Positions 3,766-64,000 of a DNA stretch of 64,000 bases are shown here, piece by piece. The notes beneath the pieces were generated by a model that searched no databases, had not been told where the DNA came from, and saw only the letters and a list, made by a program, of their open reading frames with translations. The position numbers and the translations under genes were made by a program. This DNA comes from Haematococcus lacustris (lineage: Eukaryota; Chlorophyta; Chlorophyceae; Chlamydomonadales; Haematococcaceae), in NCBI GenBank assembly GCA_030144725.1, contig JASKMD010000015.1, positions 8,449,794-8,513,793 of the forward strand, given 5' to 3'. The number at the start of each line of letters is the position of its first letter. Positions within the stretch are counted from its first letter, which is position 1.

Positions 3766-3850
3766 AAATATAATGCACCTTGCGGGTGTCGAACCCGTGT
3801 CCCCTCGCAAAAGGCAATTGTCAATCGCTACTGAAATTGACAATGTAGCT
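3766..3850 (-). other. tRNA-like sequence with perfect B box
   Basis: On the minus strand, 3795-3785 reads GGTTCGACACC, a perfect RNA polymerase III B box, in a T-arm-like hairpin with four of five stem pairs. Upstream lies a 9-bp inverted repeat (ATTGTCAAT/ATTGACAAT at 3817-3825 and 3836-3844). I could not fold a full cloverleaf in normal or permuted order: the acceptor partner GCACCTT is absent on both sides. It is best read as a tRNA-derived relic or part of a SINE. It overlaps the end of the neighbouring minus-strand frame. Confidence 0.4.
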
Positions 3851-25809: not shown

Positions 25810-25813
25810 AAAA
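25810..25813 (-). terminator. Pol III T-tract after the permuted tRNA
   Basis: TTTT on the minus strand lies 9 bases after the last base of the 5' half, just beyond the outer helix of the predicted bulge-helix-bulge. It is where a polymerase III terminator would be expected. Confidence 0.55.
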
Positions 25814-25822
25814 TGGGTGCAT

Positions 25823-25901
25823 CCCAAAGCGAGAATCATACCACTAGACCAAGTCCCCAGGGTATGGGGGACTACGGGAATCGAACCCGTGACCTCTTGC
25901 A
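25823..25901 (-). tRNA. Circularly permuted tRNA-Pro(UGG)
   Basis: Minus strand. The 3' half comes first (25901-25866: TGCAAGAGGTC, T arm ACGGGTTCGATTCCCGT, AGTCCCC, discriminator C). A 7-base spacer (25865-25859) and the 5' half (25858-25823) follow: GGGGACT, D arm TGGTCTAGTGGTAT, TCTCGC, loop TTTGGG. GGGGACT pairs perfectly with AGTCCCC (7 bp), and the T stem is perfect (5 bp). Joining the halves between positions 37 and 38 gives a 72-nt tRNA with anticodon loop TTTGGGT, anticodon TGG. The anticodon stem CTCGC/GCAAG has one C-A mismatch (29:41). The flanks form a bulge-helix-bulge: TTTG pairs with CAAA, the bulges are GGA and CAT, and the outer helix ATGC-ACCCA pairs with TGGGT-A-GCAT. Cutting after the second base of each bulge gives exactly the mature ends. 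Permuted tRNAs are known from red algae (Cyanidioschyzon) and prasinophytes. The mismatch leaves open that this copy is decaying. Confidence 0.82.
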
Positions 25902-25950
25902 TGTTTGATGCTACCCAGGTTATGTGTGTTTGTTGCTCAGACAAGGTTGT

Positions 25951-25979
25951 GTATATATCTAGTATATAGTATTTTATAG
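25951..25979 (-). promoter_or_regulatory. AT-rich TATA region upstream of the permuted tRNA
   Basis: On the minus strand CTATAAAATACTATATACT and AGATATATACAC precede the tRNA by 50-78 bp, in otherwise GC-rich DNA. Upstream TATA elements are plausible here because permutation reverses the usual A box/B box order. Its promoter role is inferred. Confidence 0.45.
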
Positions 25980-26166
25980 CTTCCAGGGTCCGGAGCTTCC
26001 AGGGTTGCACATATGGCAGAACATGGCTGCCTGCCGAGATCCTTTCTTTGCCTACCAGGACAGCAGCTAAGCAGTCTCCCCGCTCATGGTAACCAGAGAC
26101 TACGTGACCGGGTGGTTTGTGGGAGCAATAGCAGCCGCAGCAGCTACAACAACCGTAGCAGCATGA

Positions 26167-26627
26167 GGCTGGGGCTGGGGCTGGGGCTGGGGCTGGGGCT
26201 GGGGCTGGGGCTGGGGCTGGGGCTGGGGCTGGGGCTGGGGCTGGGGCTGGGGCTGGGGCTGGGGCTGGGGCTGGGGCTGGGGCTGGGCTGGGCTGGGGCT
26301 GGGGCTGGGGCTGGGGCTGGGGCTGGGGCTGGGGCTGGGGCTGGGGCTGGGGCTGGGGCTGGGGCTGGGGCTGGGCTGGGGCTGGGGCTGGGGCTGGGGC
26401 TGGGGCTGGGGCTGGGGCTGGGGCTGGGGCTGGGGCTGGGGCTGGGGCTGGGGCTGGGGCTGGGGCTGGGGCTGGGCTGGGGCTGGGGCTGGGGCTGGGC
26501 TGGGGCTGGGGCTGGGGCTGGGGCTGGGGCTGGGGCTGGGGCTGGGGCTGGGGCTGGGGCTGGGGCTGGGGCTGGGGCTGGGGCTGGGGCTGGGGCTGGG
26601 GCTGGGGCTGGGGCTGGGGCTGGGGCT
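26167..26627. repeat. GGGGCT hexanucleotide array, about 77 units
   Basis: CTGGGG repeats for about 460 bp, interrupted at about 26284-26295, 26375, 26475 and 26498 by units lacking one G. The plus strand reads Leu-Gly, Gly-Ala and Trp-Gly dipeptide repeats in its three frames; the minus strand reads Pro-Ser, Gln-Pro and Ala-Pro. The density of G4 runs strongly favours quadruplexes. I do not annotate the long frames across it as genes. Confidence 0.95.
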
Positions 26628-26639
26628 GACGCGGGCGAA

Positions 26640-32220: not shown

Positions 32221-35200
32221 TCATGGGCTGAAGACTCCACACCCTTGCTTCCCAGCGTTAAACTTGACTGCTGCCAGGGGCTTGGTAAAGATGTCTGCCA
32301 GCATGCTGTCAGTGTGGCAGTAGCTGAAAGCAACCTCGCCTCTGGTGATGCGCTCTCTGACAAAGTGATGGTGCACATCAATGTGCTTGGCACGTGCAGT
32401 TGCCATGGGATTGTGGAGCAGTTGCAGCGCTGCTTGATTGTCACAGCTCATCTGCACACACCTTGCTTCCAGCTGCAAGTCTCTCATCAGCTTTCGCAGC
32501 CACAGAGCTTCCTTGGTAGCACTGGAGGCTGCCATGTATTCGGCTTGTAGTAGGCTGTAGTCTGCTGGACCAGCTGATTGCTCCACCATTCAAGGTAAAA
32601 AGGTAGCCTGTGGTGCTTCTGGCTGTGTCCTTGTCACCAGCATAGTCTGCATCAGTAAAGCCCTGCAGGCCTGTGACTCCACCAAAAAGAAGTCCTTGCT
32701 CAGAGGTCCCCTTGAGGTAACACAGGACAGTGCAGGCAGCAGCCCAATGCTGCTTGGTGGGAGCAGACATGTGCCTAGCCAGGGCACCCACGGAGAACGC
32801 TATGTCAGGCCGTGTGCAGCATGACAGGTACAGCAGGCTTCCTACCAAGGCACTATACTGGTGCACAGATGTGTCCAGAGCCTCCCCTTCCCTGATTAAC
32901 TTGACTGCTGCAGCCATGGGTAGGGTCTTGCTGTGTGCATTAGACATGTTGTGTGTGGTGACCAGCTCATGGATGAGCTTCTGCTGGCTGATCAGAATTG
33001 TGCCCTCAGCTCTGTCCCTAACAAGCTGCATGCCCAGGAAACACCTTGCCTCTCCCAGGTCCTTCAGTTTGAACACTGAGGAGAGCTTCTGCTTGACATA
33101 GGCCAGTCCTGTGGTGTCCCCCTGCTGTGTGCACAGGAGGCAATCATCCACCTAGACCAGCAGGTAGACTGTGCCTGATGGTAGGTGCAGAGTAAACAAA
33201 GCAGGATCAGCCTCAGATGACTTGAAGTTCATGGCCAGAAGCTCTTCGCAAAGCCTAGCATGCCATGCCCTGGGTGCCTGCCTCAGACCATACAGAGCCT
33301 TATGCAGACGACAAACAGTGTTACTGCTGCCCTCCCTGAAGCCTTCTGGCTGCTGGACATAGATGACCTCGTGCTCTGCAAGCACTCCATTCAGAAAAGC
33401 AGTCTCAAAATCCAGCTGGTGCACTTCCATGTTCTCTGCTGCTGCCTTTGCCAGTAGGGCCCTTAGTGTGGTGTGCTTGCTGACAGGAGCATACACGTCT
33501 CCTACATCCACACCTGATTGTTGAAAGTACCCCTTAGCCACTAGCCTGGCCTTGTACCGCTCGACATTCCCTGCGGCATCACGCTTCACTTTTAGTACCC
33601 ACTTTGTAGGCAGGACACGTGCATTTGCAGGGCGCTCTTCAAGTGACCATGTTTGGTTAGAGTGCAGGGAAGCCAACTCAGCATTCATGGCCTCAATCCA
33701 CATGTCTGCCTGAGGACTGGCCAGTGCTTCTTCCACAGTGGGTGTGTCATTGACAGGAGAGTCTGACACAGTCATGGCATACAGGTCAGAGTCCCTGAAC
33801 CTCTCAGGTCGGTGCCTCTCTCTGGATGGGTTGCGCCGTGGCACGGGTGCAGCAGGTGCTTCAGGTGAGGCAGGCCGTGGATCAGGTGCAGCAGGCATGG
33901 GCGCAGAGGGGTGTACTGCTGGTGCTACTGGTCCTGCTGCTGCTGGTGCTGGGATGAGAGAAACACGGCGCGCAGGCTGTGCCAAACCAGGTGCTCCTGG
34001 TCTGGCTGCTGGTGCTGCTGCTGCTGCTGCTGCTGGTCTTGCTGCTGTTGGTGCTGCAGCTGATGCTGATGGTCTGACTGCTGCTGGTGTTGCAGCTGAT
34101 GTTGCAGCTGGTCTGACTGCTGCTGGTGCTGCAGCTGATGTTGCAGCTGGTCTTGCTGCTGCTGGTACTGCGGTTGATGCTGATGGCCTGGCTGCTGCTG
34201 GTGCTGCAGCCGCTGATGCTGCTGGTCTCTCTGCTTCTGGTGCTGTTGCTGGTGCGACTGGCTGTGCTCCCACTGTCTCCCTGGCTAGAGGCATGGGTCG
34301 AAGGCTAAACCTGCCTATTCCAGGTCTGGGTAGTCTGCTGATGAGCTCTAGTTGCTGTTGCTGCCACATGTGGGAGCCTGGCTCGTATCTGGCAGTAAGA
34401 CTGATCTGCTCTGGCTCACTGAGTGGAGATTCAGGTCTGCTGCTGTCGTCCTGTGCCTCAATTCTCTGCAAGGGTCTGGACTGTGGTTGCTGTGCACTAC
34501 TGCCCGGCCTGTTGCTGCTGTCGGTGCTGCTGCTGCTGCTGCTGCTGCTCCCACTGTCGTCAGAGCCACTGCTGCTGGTCTGTTGCAGACTGTTGCCCCC
34601 CTCAGCAGGGGCTACTGGCTCAGAGGAGGACAAAGGGCTGGGTGGGAGGGGTAACAGAAACACAGGCTGGGCTGGCTGGTCATGCTGGCGGGCAGGCTGC
34701 AGCACAGACAGCTCGTCAAACACAATGTCTTTGCTGCAGGTCTCTCTGCCGTTGACCTCTACCAGGTAAGCCTTGGAGCCAGGCTGGTAGCCAATGAACA
34801 GGCCCTCAACTGACTTGGACTGAAGCTTGCTGCGCTTGTGGTCAGGCACATGGAGCCATACCTTGCATCCGAACACTCTGAGACCTGACAAATCAGGCTT
34901 GACACCATAAAAGGCTTCCCAGGGTGTGAGTGGCTGACCTGACACAGGTAGTAGACACCTGATGTAGTTGGCATACTTGACTGCATGAGCCCAGAAGCTG
35001 AGAGAGATATCAGCAGCATGGAGAATGCTGCGAGCCTTCTCAAAGATTGTCCTGTTCAGGCGCTCAGCTGCACCGTTCTGCTGGGGGCTGTATGGTGCTG
35101 AGTGTTGGTGCACGATGCCCTTGCTGCTGCAGTATTCCTTCATACGGCTGTTGACATACTCTGTGCCATTGTCTGTGCGGATGGCTTTGCAGCGGAAGCC

Positions 35201-36159
35201 AGATTGAGTCTCCAGCTGTTCTATCACAGTTCTGACTACGTCTGGGACTTGCGACTTGCTGCTGATGGGCACACACACAGACAGCTTGGTGTGCTCGTCA
35301 AGGAAGGTGGCTACATAGAGGCTCCCATCCCTGGCCCTTGCATGCATGGGGCCACAGACATCCATGTGGATCAGGCCAAGGGGTGTTGTTACTGGAGCTG
35401 CATTAGGGGGTGGGTCTGCAAAGGCGACATTCTTGTGCTGTTTGCCCTTGACACAGCCCACACACACGGTTGGATCAGAGGCAGCTGCCCGAAATTGTGA
35501 TGCTGTAACAGGAACACCTGACACCATGCCCTCTGACTGCATACGGGATAGAGCAGCATAGGAAGCATGGCACAGTCGCTGGTGCCACACCTTGGGGGAG
35601 TTGGATGTGGAGCTGTTGGCGGAGGGCGCAGCAGTGTTGGTCAGAAGCTCCAGCTTCACCCGGTTGTCTGGCTGTAGGGTTGACTGCTGGATGCCGTACA
35701 GCTTCTCAGGCTCAGAGTCTGTATCTGGGCCATCAGGCATAGGGACAGCAGCCAGGATGTAAGAGTTCCTGATCTTGTGAGCGTTTACTCTGAGCATGCT
35801 GCCAAAGCGGTTGCTGCTGATCTGGCACAGATCACCACGGAAAAGAAAGCTGCTGCCGTCTTCTGTAGCTGCTGACACTGAAATGAAGTTCTCTTTGCTG
35901 TCAGGCACATACAGAGCATGACTGAGAAACCAGGAACCTCGCTTGGTGCTGAGAAACACACTGCCAGATCCGACTGCCCAGACCCTGTGGCCTGCTGCTG
36001 CCAGCTTCACAGGCCTGTGCTTGTCAGGCGCAAAGGGTGTGTAGTTGTAGAAGAACTGCAGATCTTTCAGGATGTGCTGGGATGCGCCTGAGTCAATGAA
36101 GAAGGGGCTGTATAGATCGCTGTTGAAGTTCAGTCTGGGCTGCACCATCTGCATGAGGG

Positions 36160-36190
<31 letters not shown>

Positions 36191-37273
36191 AGTGGCAGTG
36201 AACAGGGAGGCACCCCTGCTTGGGCTCTGAGCTGCTGCTCTGCCAGGAGTCTGGGTCCTGCCTCTGCCGGGGCTGGATGGCCTGGCTGGGCTGGAGCTTC
36301 TGCCTGGGCTGGGCCTTCTACCAGGGCTGCTGGTCCTGGCAGAGTTGCTGAATAGAGTCTTCATGCGGTTGCGCTGATCCCTGTCAAAGACGAAGCACTC
36401 TGACATGATGTGACCTGGCTTGGCACAGTAGTTGCAGGTCAGGTGAGCGTGTGAGCTAACATCCCTGGTGGACCTGTCAGGAGACTGTGCCCTGGACAGC
36501 TGCTCACGAGGCTGCTGAGGGGCCCTGCTCCTGCCCCTGCCCCCCTGGCCACCTGAACTGCCAGCCCCCCTGTGCTCAGAAGGGGAGGAGTACGACCAGA
36601 GTGTGGATGAGGAGGTGCTGAGCTGCTGCTGCATTTGCTTGCTGAGTAGGTCTGCTTCCTTCTGCAGCAGCACACGCTTGATGCGCTCAACTGTAAGGTC
36701 TGCGCTGGTTTGATCATAGCGCAGTCTCTCAACCGTGCCCTCATACTCAGGCGGCAGGGCTGCCAGAATGGCCAGCACCACTGTGGACTCAGAGGTTTCG
36801 CAGCTGCAAGCTTCGAGCTCTGTTAGCAGCTGCTGCAAACGCGCATAGAAGCGCGAAACTGACTCGCCGGGTTCCATGCGCAGGAGGCTGAGTTGCTGCT
36901 GAAGCTGAGACTGTCGCGCGACCGACGACTGGGTGAACTGGGATTCGAGGGTCTCCCAGGAGTCTTGCGCTGAGTTCGCGTTCTTGACAGTGAAGATGTG
37001 GAGATTGGAGACGTGCCGCTGGATAAAGGCTTTGGCTTTCCGGTCCAGGGCTGTTTCTGCGCGAGAGCGAGTTAGCTCAGCATTGTAAGCAGCCTGCTCC
37101 TGCTGAGTGGCGTTGGCTGCTGGCGCAGTGGGTAAGGGGGTGACGCCGTCGGCGACGACGGACCAGAGGCCTGCTTCAATCAGCAGGCCCTCAGTCCGGA
37201 TGCTCCAGATCGGCCAGTTATCATCATCGAGAATAGTCGGCTGATTTCCAGGAAGCGAGGGATTAGTTGCCAT
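32221..37273 (-). pseudogene. Copia gag-pol polyprotein with amber codon and frameshift
   Basis: Starts MATNPSLPGNQPTILDDDNW at 37273. Gag shows a UBN2-like core, then the zinc knuckle CNYCAKPGHIMSEC and aspartic protease FIDSGASQHI. The pre-integrase finger has WHQRLCHA and CVGCVKGKQHK. Integrase catalytic residues sit in HMDVCGPM, RTDNGTEYV and QQNGAAERLNRT. Reverse transcriptase shows KARLVAKGY, QLDFETAFLNG and LYGLRQAPRAWH. A TAG at 33152-33154 replaces the first residue of the catalytic YVDD box: the frame resumes VDDCLLCTQ in phase. RNase H (FTDADYAGD) follows. Between about 32540 and 32580 the frame shifts by one, and QAEYMAASSATKEALWLRKL continues to the stop at 32221. This copy therefore cannot make a full polyprotein without readthrough. 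Confidence 0.9.

Positions 37274-60711: not shown

Positions 60712-64000
<3,289 letters not shown>

What the first reader, a model, noticed from the sequence alone, without database searches (positions are those of the whole stretch)
25810..25920. Circularly permuted tRNA-Pro(UGG) with a reconstructable bulge-helix-bulge
The minus strand has the tRNA 3' half (T arm, 7-bp acceptor strand AGTCCCC, discriminator C) before the 5' half (acceptor GGGGACT, D arm, TCTCGCTTTGGG). Only 7 bases separate them. Acceptor and T stems are perfect. Leader and trailer pair: TTTG with CAAA, ATGC with GCAT, ACCCA with TGGGT. This leaves 3-nt bulges GGA and CAT whose cleavage after the second base gives exactly positions 37 and 38. 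Permuted tRNA genes are established in Cyanidioschyzon and prasinophytes; one in a chlorophycean-like genome would extend the range. The only blemish is a C-A mismatch at 29:41.
Basis: partly seen in the sequence, partly recalled or inferred. Interest (0 to 1): 0.93.

Follow-up and report, generated by a model that had tools for sequence, protein, structure and literature searches.

The report
Back-to-front proline tRNA gene family
In the assembled genome of the green alga Haematococcus lacustris the genes found for two of three proline tRNAs are written back to front, in 37 intact copies with no normally ordered copy found, so the cell would have to cut and rejoin a predicted circular RNA to translate likely three of the four proline codons.

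Summary
Window 25823-25901 (minus strand) holds the 3' half of tRNA-Pro(UGG), 7 nt of spacer, then the 5' half; rejoined, ARAGORN calls tRNA-Pro(TGG). Leader and trailer can form a bulge-helix-bulge at 37/38; TATAAAA lies upstream and TTTT directly downstream. The genome is Haematococcus lacustris, Chlorophyceae. A census at up to 3 mismatches finds 37 intact permuted tRNA-Pro genes (10 UGG, 27 AGG; some may be alleles), 4 broken copies and no conventional UGG or AGG gene; the same search found 5 conventional CGG genes. Mature sequences are identical in 10 of 10 UGG and 25 of 27 AGG copies, while leaders, spacers and trailers have diverged. The junction helix follows the anticodon (U34:A, A34:U). 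The C29-A41 'blemish' is in all 10 UGG copies, so it is not decay of this copy. Permuted and conventional tRNA genes here share an upstream CATC word. A Sen34-like endonuclease exon is present. Expression and the circular intermediate are inferred. The gene type is known; the lineage, isotype, copy number and apparent replacement of conventional genes look new.

The parts
25972..25978 (-). TATA-like TATAAAA, in an AT-rich stretch 25951-25985 (23% GC, lowest 0.02% of 35-mers of the window)
   Evidence: promoter role inferred
25932..25935 (-). CAAC at -34 from the 3' half, where 30 of 37 permuted copies have CATC at -34 to -32; candidate transcription start
   Evidence: inferred
25908..25917 (-). 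leader strand of the outer helix (TGGGTAGCAT), pairs with ATGCACCCA
25904..25907 (-). leader strand of the central 4-bp helix (CAAA), pairs with T32 T33 T34 G35
25902..25903 (-). last two leader bases (CA) of the 3-nt bulge CA|T38; predicted cut just after them
   Evidence: cut inferred from the bulge-helix-bulge rule (recalled)
25866..25901 (-). 3' half of tRNA-Pro(UGG): positions 38-73 (T38, anticodon 3' strand with A41, variable loop, T arm, acceptor 3' strand, discriminator C)
25859..25865 (-). 7-nt intervening sequence ATACCCT joining acceptor 3' and 5' strands; predicted to be removed by end processing
25823..25858 (-). 5' half of tRNA-Pro(UGG): positions 1-37 (acceptor 5' strand, D arm, anticodon stem, UGG anticodon, G37)
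25814..25822 (-). trailer ATGCACCCA, outer-helix partner; predicted cut just before it, after G37
25810..25813 (-). TTTT, candidate RNA polymerase III terminator
   Evidence: role inferred

Best explanation
This is one of 37 intact circularly permuted (type II, junction 37/38) tRNA-Pro genes in the Haematococcus lacustris assembly, which are likely its only source of tRNA-Pro(UGG) and tRNA-Pro(AGG). Likely working: RNA polymerase III, directed by an upstream TATA/CATC-type promoter and stopped by the T-tract, makes one short RNA in the order leader, 3' half, spacer, 5' half, trailer (inferred). Leader and trailer pair across the anticodon loop into a bulge-helix-bulge (complementarity and covariation with the anticodon shown; fold in the cell inferred). 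The tRNA-splicing endonuclease would cut after G37 and before T38, and ligation would close a circular pre-tRNA with the normal anticodon loop. End-processing nucleases would then remove the spacer, open the circle at the acceptor end, and CCA would be added (inferred from Cyanidioschyzon as described in PMC3978253). Shown here: the arrangement, the two-isoacceptor family, no conventional UGG or AGG gene at the search sensitivity, near-invariant exons, junction covariation, an upstream word shared with conventional tRNA genes, and a Sen34-like exon.
For: Both halves in permuted order, rejoined to a tRNA that ARAGORN calls Pro(TGG). 46 places carry the Pro 5' half at up to 3 mismatches: 37 intact permuted, 4 broken, 5 conventional CGG; reversed control pattern 0. 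39 places carry the 3' half: the same 37, plus 2 with 3 mismatches; the coordinates pair up exactly 37 to 37. One mature sequence for 10 of 10 UGG copies, one for 25 of 27 AGG copies. In 23 of the 37 copies aligned, exon columns are invariant 72 of 72 (UGG, n=10) and 71 of 72 (AGG, n=13), with leader, spacer and trailer 45-62% identical. Central helix 4/4 in 33 of 37, and TTTT beginning at most 14 nt after the 5' half in 35 of 37. Position 34 with leader -5: T:A 10, A:T 25, A:C 2 of 37. Cognate leader-trailer duplexes are better than all 20,000 re-pairings of 12 non-redundant loci. CATC between -48 and -26 in 31 of 37 permuted copies and between -45 and -8 at 23 of 30 conventional loci. Sen34-like exon.
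Against: No RNA data: transcription, circle and charging untested. Unconstrained folding of the window pre-tRNA gives -40.1 against -31.8 kcal/mol for cloverleaf plus bulge-helix-bulge. The outer helix register varies and is weak in some copies; the cognate trailer is the single best partner for only 3 of 12 leaders. The count of pairs changed on both sides is reached by 366 of 500 shuffles. 4 of 37 lack one central pair; L015 and L026 lack a close TTTT; only 14 of 37 have a TATA-like word. The UGG tRNA keeps a C29-A41 mismatch. A conventional gene with more than 3 mismatches in both searched stretches, or in unassembled DNA, would be missed. Copies may include alleles.
Confidence: 0.93

Rival explanations
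1. Relics: tandem duplication of a normal tRNA-Pro followed by truncation left inactive 3'-half/5'-half pairs, and functional tRNAs come from conventional genes.
For: Truncated copies exist (L029, L035, L036, L092); tandem duplication plus loss of outer halves is a published model for how permuted genes arise (PMC3978253 section 10).
Against: No conventional UGG or AGG gene in the assembly at the sensitivity used, while the conventional CGG genes are found; exons near invariant while flanks diverge; junction pairing follows the anticodon.
Confidence: 0.03
2. Conventional splicing over a distance: in the tandem arrays the 5' half of one copy and the 3' half of the next are joined as one tRNA with a long intron.
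For: On C175, 7 pairs of copies lie with 713 nt between a 5' half and the next 3' half in conventional order.
Against: 713 nt is the shortest such distance of all; all 10 UGG copies lie at least about 1 kb from the next copy; TTTT soon after the 5' half in 35 of 37 copies would end transcription; leader and trailer of the same copy pair better than re-paired ones on average.
Confidence: 0.02
3. The family is a tRNA-derived mobile repeat (SINE-like) that merely carries permuted halves.
For: Multi-copy, in a transposon-rich window.
Against: Among 13 loci compared with 3-kb flanks, many pairs share only about 100-250 bp around the gene, and the longer matches look like segmental duplications; exons are near exact while flanks are not, unlike a decaying repeat. 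The two isoacceptors would still have no other gene.
Confidence: 0.02

Closest known systems
Type II circularly permuted tRNA genes of prasinophyte green algae (Ostreococcus, Micromonas) and the Bigelowiella nucleomorph (from PMC3978253, sections 5 and 8 whole, first parts of sections 4 and 10; Maruyama et al. 2010 itself not read)
   Same: 3' half before 5' half, junction 37/38 (all but one of that table's green-algal entries), hBH-type motif, short spacer (5-64 bp in that table's green-algal and nucleomorph rows; here 7-18), AT-rich upstream stretch in some.
   Different: The table lists no Pro and mostly one gene per isoacceptor; here two Pro isoacceptors have 37 intact copies, partly in tandem arrays, in a 308-Mb assembly of a member of the class Chlorophyceae.
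[quoted passage not shown]
   Same: Permutation, upstream TATA-like element, downstream T-stretch, CCA not encoded; circular intermediate and charged tRNA reported there.
   Different: There junctions sit at 20/21, 37/38, 50/51 or 59/60 and the genome is compact (16.5 Mb); here all 37 are at 37/38. The TFIIIC subunits not identified there could not be tested here.
Permuted tRNA genes of Auxenochlorella (PMC12633428, passages read; a trebouxiophyte by recall)
   Same: Green-algal nuclear permuted tRNA genes, noticed after tRNAscan-SE gave an incomplete set.
   Different: The passages seen give no isotype or copy number; streamlined genome; another class (recalled).
Permuted tRNAs of the archaeon Thermofilum pendens (same review)
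   Same: Sole genes for their anticodons, hence argued to be functional.
   Different: Junction 59/60, CCA encoded, single-copy.

Membership tests
Circularly permuted tRNA gene, type II | 3' half encoded upstream of 5' half on one strand | tested here: met
Circularly permuted tRNA gene, type II | Rejoined halves give a complete tRNA with normal eukaryotic features and no encoded CCA | tested here: met
   ARAGORN tRNA-Pro(tgg) on the rejoined 72 nt; discriminator followed by ATACCCT; one C29-A41 mismatch
Circularly permuted tRNA gene, type II | Bulge-helix-bulge type motif at the junction, at 37/38 | tested here: met
   central helix 4/4 in 33 of 37 copies; position 34 and leader -5 change together; 5' bulge 2 or 3 nt; not the predicted minimum-energy fold
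Circularly permuted tRNA gene, type II | Short spacer without its own promoter or terminator | tested here: met
   7-18 nt, no TTTT in the 37 spacers listed
Circularly permuted tRNA gene, type II | Upstream TATA-like or AT-rich element and downstream T-stretch | tested here: met
   window: TATAAAA and TTTT; family: TTTT in 35 of 37, CATC in 31 of 37, TATA-like word in only 14 of 37
Circularly permuted tRNA gene, type II | Circular pre-tRNA intermediate; mature tRNA charged | not testable with these tools
   no RNA data on hand
tRNA pseudogene | Decayed relative to functional conventional copies | tested here: not met
   no conventional UGG or AGG copy found; exons near invariant
Intron-containing conventional tRNA gene | 5' half followed by 3' half within intron length | tested here: not met
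   exact pattern with 0-30 nt gap, G41 form: 0 hits; of 41 UGG/AGG 5' halves none has a 3' half closer than 713 nt downstream

The most novel reading that the evidence does not exclude
Haematococcus has given up conventional genes for tRNA-Pro(AGG) and tRNA-Pro(UGG): every CCU, CCC and CCA codon would be read by tRNAs that pass through a circular RNA, and the permuted form was itself amplified to dozens of copies and shared by two isoacceptors, with the junction helix tuned to each anticodon. Permuted tRNA genes are then not relics of compact genomes but a gene form able to displace the normal one.
Probability: 0.8. Interest if true: 0.85.

Novelty: new member of a known kind. Interest (0 to 1): 0.78.

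Why it matters
The 2014 review counted 34 permuted tRNA genes known by then, from six algae and one archaeon; this one assembly holds 37 intact copies for a single amino acid. They are the only genes found for two isoacceptors that translation presumably cannot do without, so circular pre-tRNA processing would be essential in this alga. The family offers many natural variants of one junction to test what the splicing endonuclease needs, and a genome where permuted and conventional genes share an upstream word, so that transcription with inverted A and B boxes can be studied. ARAGORN missed every permuted copy given to it (window; 15 stretches covering 13 loci), so other algal gene sets may lack such genes too.

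Tried and rejected
ARAGORN and Rfam at gathering threshold on the window: nothing, as expected for a permuted gene; ARAGORN does call the 5 conventional CGG genes. Looking for the permuted Pro arrangement in viral contigs and genome contigs: 0 and 0. The 5'-half pattern: 0 in viral contigs and 1 in genome contigs, an ordinary tRNA-Pro(TGG) on a contig in a bacterial bin, used as a yardstick with G at position 41. Phage records: only a short tRNA match in 2 records of one phage. The idea that C29-A41 means decay was dropped when all 10 UGG copies proved to have it. A general model R1 of permuted tRNAs finds the window gene (75.5 bits; Pro is in its training set, so this is no independent test). 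In 35 of the loci then held it gave 73.2-76.8 bits at permuted copies and 30.4 bits or less elsewhere, and no other isotype came out permuted; these loci are not a sample of the genome. Whether other isotypes are permuted stays open. The RF00005 search scored 63 of 6,533 candidates, so it is no census of conventional tRNAs. Searches for TFIIIC (PF04182, PF09734) and for conventional initiator-Met and Cys junctions did not complete.

Full report
What is in the window. On the minus strand, 25901-25866 is the 3' half of a tRNA (positions 38-73), 25865-25859 a 7-nt spacer, and 25858-25823 the 5' half (positions 1-37). ARAGORN finds no gene in the window as it stands but calls the rejoined 72 nt tRNA-Pro(tgg). 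From position 8 to 38 it equals a conventional tRNA-Pro(TGG), eukaryotic-looking by my reading, on a contig in a bacterial bin. No second copy of either half lies in the window.

Junction. Leader CAAA (-6 to -3) pairs with T32 T33 T34 G35, leaving CA|T38 as a 3-nt bulge and G36 G37|A as the other bulge; cuts after the second bulge base would give exactly 37 and 38. Beyond the bulges TGGGT-A-GCAT pairs with ATGCACCCA. Unconstrained folding prefers another structure (-40.1 kcal/mol), so the fold rests on comparison, not on energy. Random window flanks match both helices in 78 of 20,000 draws, nearby flanks in 104 of 17,381.

Signals. TATAAAA lies at 25978-25972 in a 23% GC stretch, and TTTT at 25813-25810 follows the trailer helix at once. 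Chance rates are 0.4% (TATAAA within 80 nt upstream) and 1.2% (TTTT within 14 nt downstream).

Organism. A reverse-transcriptase ORF of the window is 99% identical over 96% to a Haematococcus lacustris protein, and the 22 best hits are named for that species (120 of 302 hits listed). NCBI places it in Chlorophyceae, Chlamydomonadales. The window is part of a 308-Mb assembly in 597 contigs. The title of the published H. lacustris genome paper speaks of diploid traits, and the splicing-endonuclease exon appears three times with one score, so some of the copies below may be alleles or duplicated assembly.

Family. A DNA search with the locus gave 40 matches (40 of 45 first-look candidates scored). 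I fetched the other 39. With the window, 37 are complete permuted genes: 10 with anticodon UGG and 27 with AGG. A census of the Pro 5' half at up to 3 mismatches gave 46 places: 30 AGG, 11 UGG, 5 CGG; the reversed control pattern gave 0. The 41 AGG/UGG places are the 37 intact genes plus 4 broken ones (L029, L035, L036, L092). The 5 CGG places are ordinary intronless genes. A census of the 3' half gave 39 places: the 37 intact permuted genes and 2 with 3 mismatches that I did not fetch. By coordinates, 37 of 41 5' halves have a 3' half less than 60 nt upstream, and the shortest conventional-order distance anywhere is 713 nt, between neighbouring array copies. The conventional-order pattern (exact, G41 form, gap 0-30) gave 0. 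So no conventional tRNA-Pro(UGG) or (AGG) was found, and the CGG genes show that the search can find conventional genes. From the standard decoding rules (recalled), CGG reads only CCG, so CCU, CCC and CCA would depend on the permuted genes.

Selection. All 10 UGG genes give one mature sequence; 25 of 27 AGG genes give one, and two differ by a base each. In 23 aligned copies (alignment A1; 14 of the 37, mostly near-identical array copies, left out), exon columns are invariant in 72 of 72 (UGG, n=10) and 71 of 72 (AGG, n=13), while leaders, spacers and trailers are 45-62% identical. Leader -5 follows position 34: T:A in 10, A:T in 25, A:C in 2 of 37 (7, 4 and 1 in another order of 12 non-redundant loci: A:T 7, T:A 4, A:C 1). 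In those 12 loci cognate leader-trailer duplexes average -6.78 against -3.86 kcal/mol for non-cognate ones, and none of 20,000 re-pairings does as well; yet the cognate trailer is the single best for only 3 of 12 leaders. Counted on the alignment, 97.6% of cells pair, against 53.8% at best when the partners are slid; the covariation score is reached by 0 of 500 shuffles, but the number of pairs changed on both sides (2) is reached by 366 of 500. Those two pairs (34:-5 and 4:69) separate the two classes and may be one event each. C29-A41 is unpaired in all 10 UGG copies, so it is a shared trait; editing or tolerance is untested.

Transcription. CATC occurs between -48 and -26 in 31 of 37 permuted genes, 30 of them at -34 to -32, and between -45 and -8 at 23 of 30 conventional loci fetched, several of them near-identical. 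The window copy has CAAC at -34. TTTT begins at most 14 nt after the 5' half in 35 of 37, against 16 of 29 conventional ARAGORN calls within 20 nt, one of these a doubtful Leu. A TATA-like word is found in only 14 of 37.

Machinery. A tRNA-splicing endonuclease catalytic domain is present at 3 places with one score; the exon at one of them is closest to Sen34 of solved structures. TFIIIC searches did not complete and ligase was not searched.

How copies spread. Of 13 loci with 3-kb flanks compared, two of the three UGG copies on C49 share 3.1 kb at 97% and the third shares long blocks with them; the two AGG copies on C11 share 3 kb at 87%, and L007 and L009 (both C251) share long blocks; other pairs share about 100-250 bp around the gene. 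DNA duplication of permuted genes is therefore shown for some; reverse transcription of a circular pre-tRNA, proposed in the review for origin, is not excluded for the dispersed ones.

Comparison with print. Of Soma 2014 (PMC3978253) I read the abstract, sections 5 and 8, and the first parts of sections 4 and 10. I saw passages of the Auxenochlorella preprint, of a chlorarachniophyte nucleomorph paper, and of the H. lacustris genome paper, whose tRNA passages concern organelles or references, with no occurrence of 'permuted'. The review lists 34 permuted genes, none for Pro, and says Chlamydomonas reinhardtii contains none. Searches of the held open library for permuted tRNA alone, with Chlorophyceae, and with Haematococcus (listings seen) showed no report for Haematococcus; most subscription papers are not held.

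Verdict. A family of type II circularly permuted tRNA-Pro genes, very likely functional and likely the only genes for two isoacceptors. The kind is known; the amplification, the isotype, the class of alga and the apparent loss of the conventional genes look new.

Noticed in passing
window 60978-64000: A perfect (GCT)n array of over 3 kb that runs to the window end; biological or an assembly product.
   Followed up: no
window 3775-3809, minus strand: A lone T-arm-like hairpin (CGGGTTCGACACCCG) just after an ORF end and before T-rich DNA; weak hit of the permuted-tRNA model (13.3 bits, E 0.12); no 5' half seen nearby. Perhaps a tRNA-like 3' end of a retroelement.
   Followed up: partly
window 32441-37273, minus strand: A copia-type retrotransposon reading frame in two adjoining ORFs.
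   Followed up: no
L029, L035, L036, L092: Broken Pro loci: 5' halves with a missing, truncated or degenerate 3' half; L035 and L036 share upstream sequence resembling that of L027.
   Followed up: partly
UGG 3' half, window 25891-25901: TGCAAGAGGTC, with A41, is identical to the start of the 3' half of this genome's tRNA-Ala(UGC); gene conversion or coincidence.
   Followed up: no
window 26167-26628: A (GGCTGG)n array of about 460 bp next to the locus.
   Followed up: no
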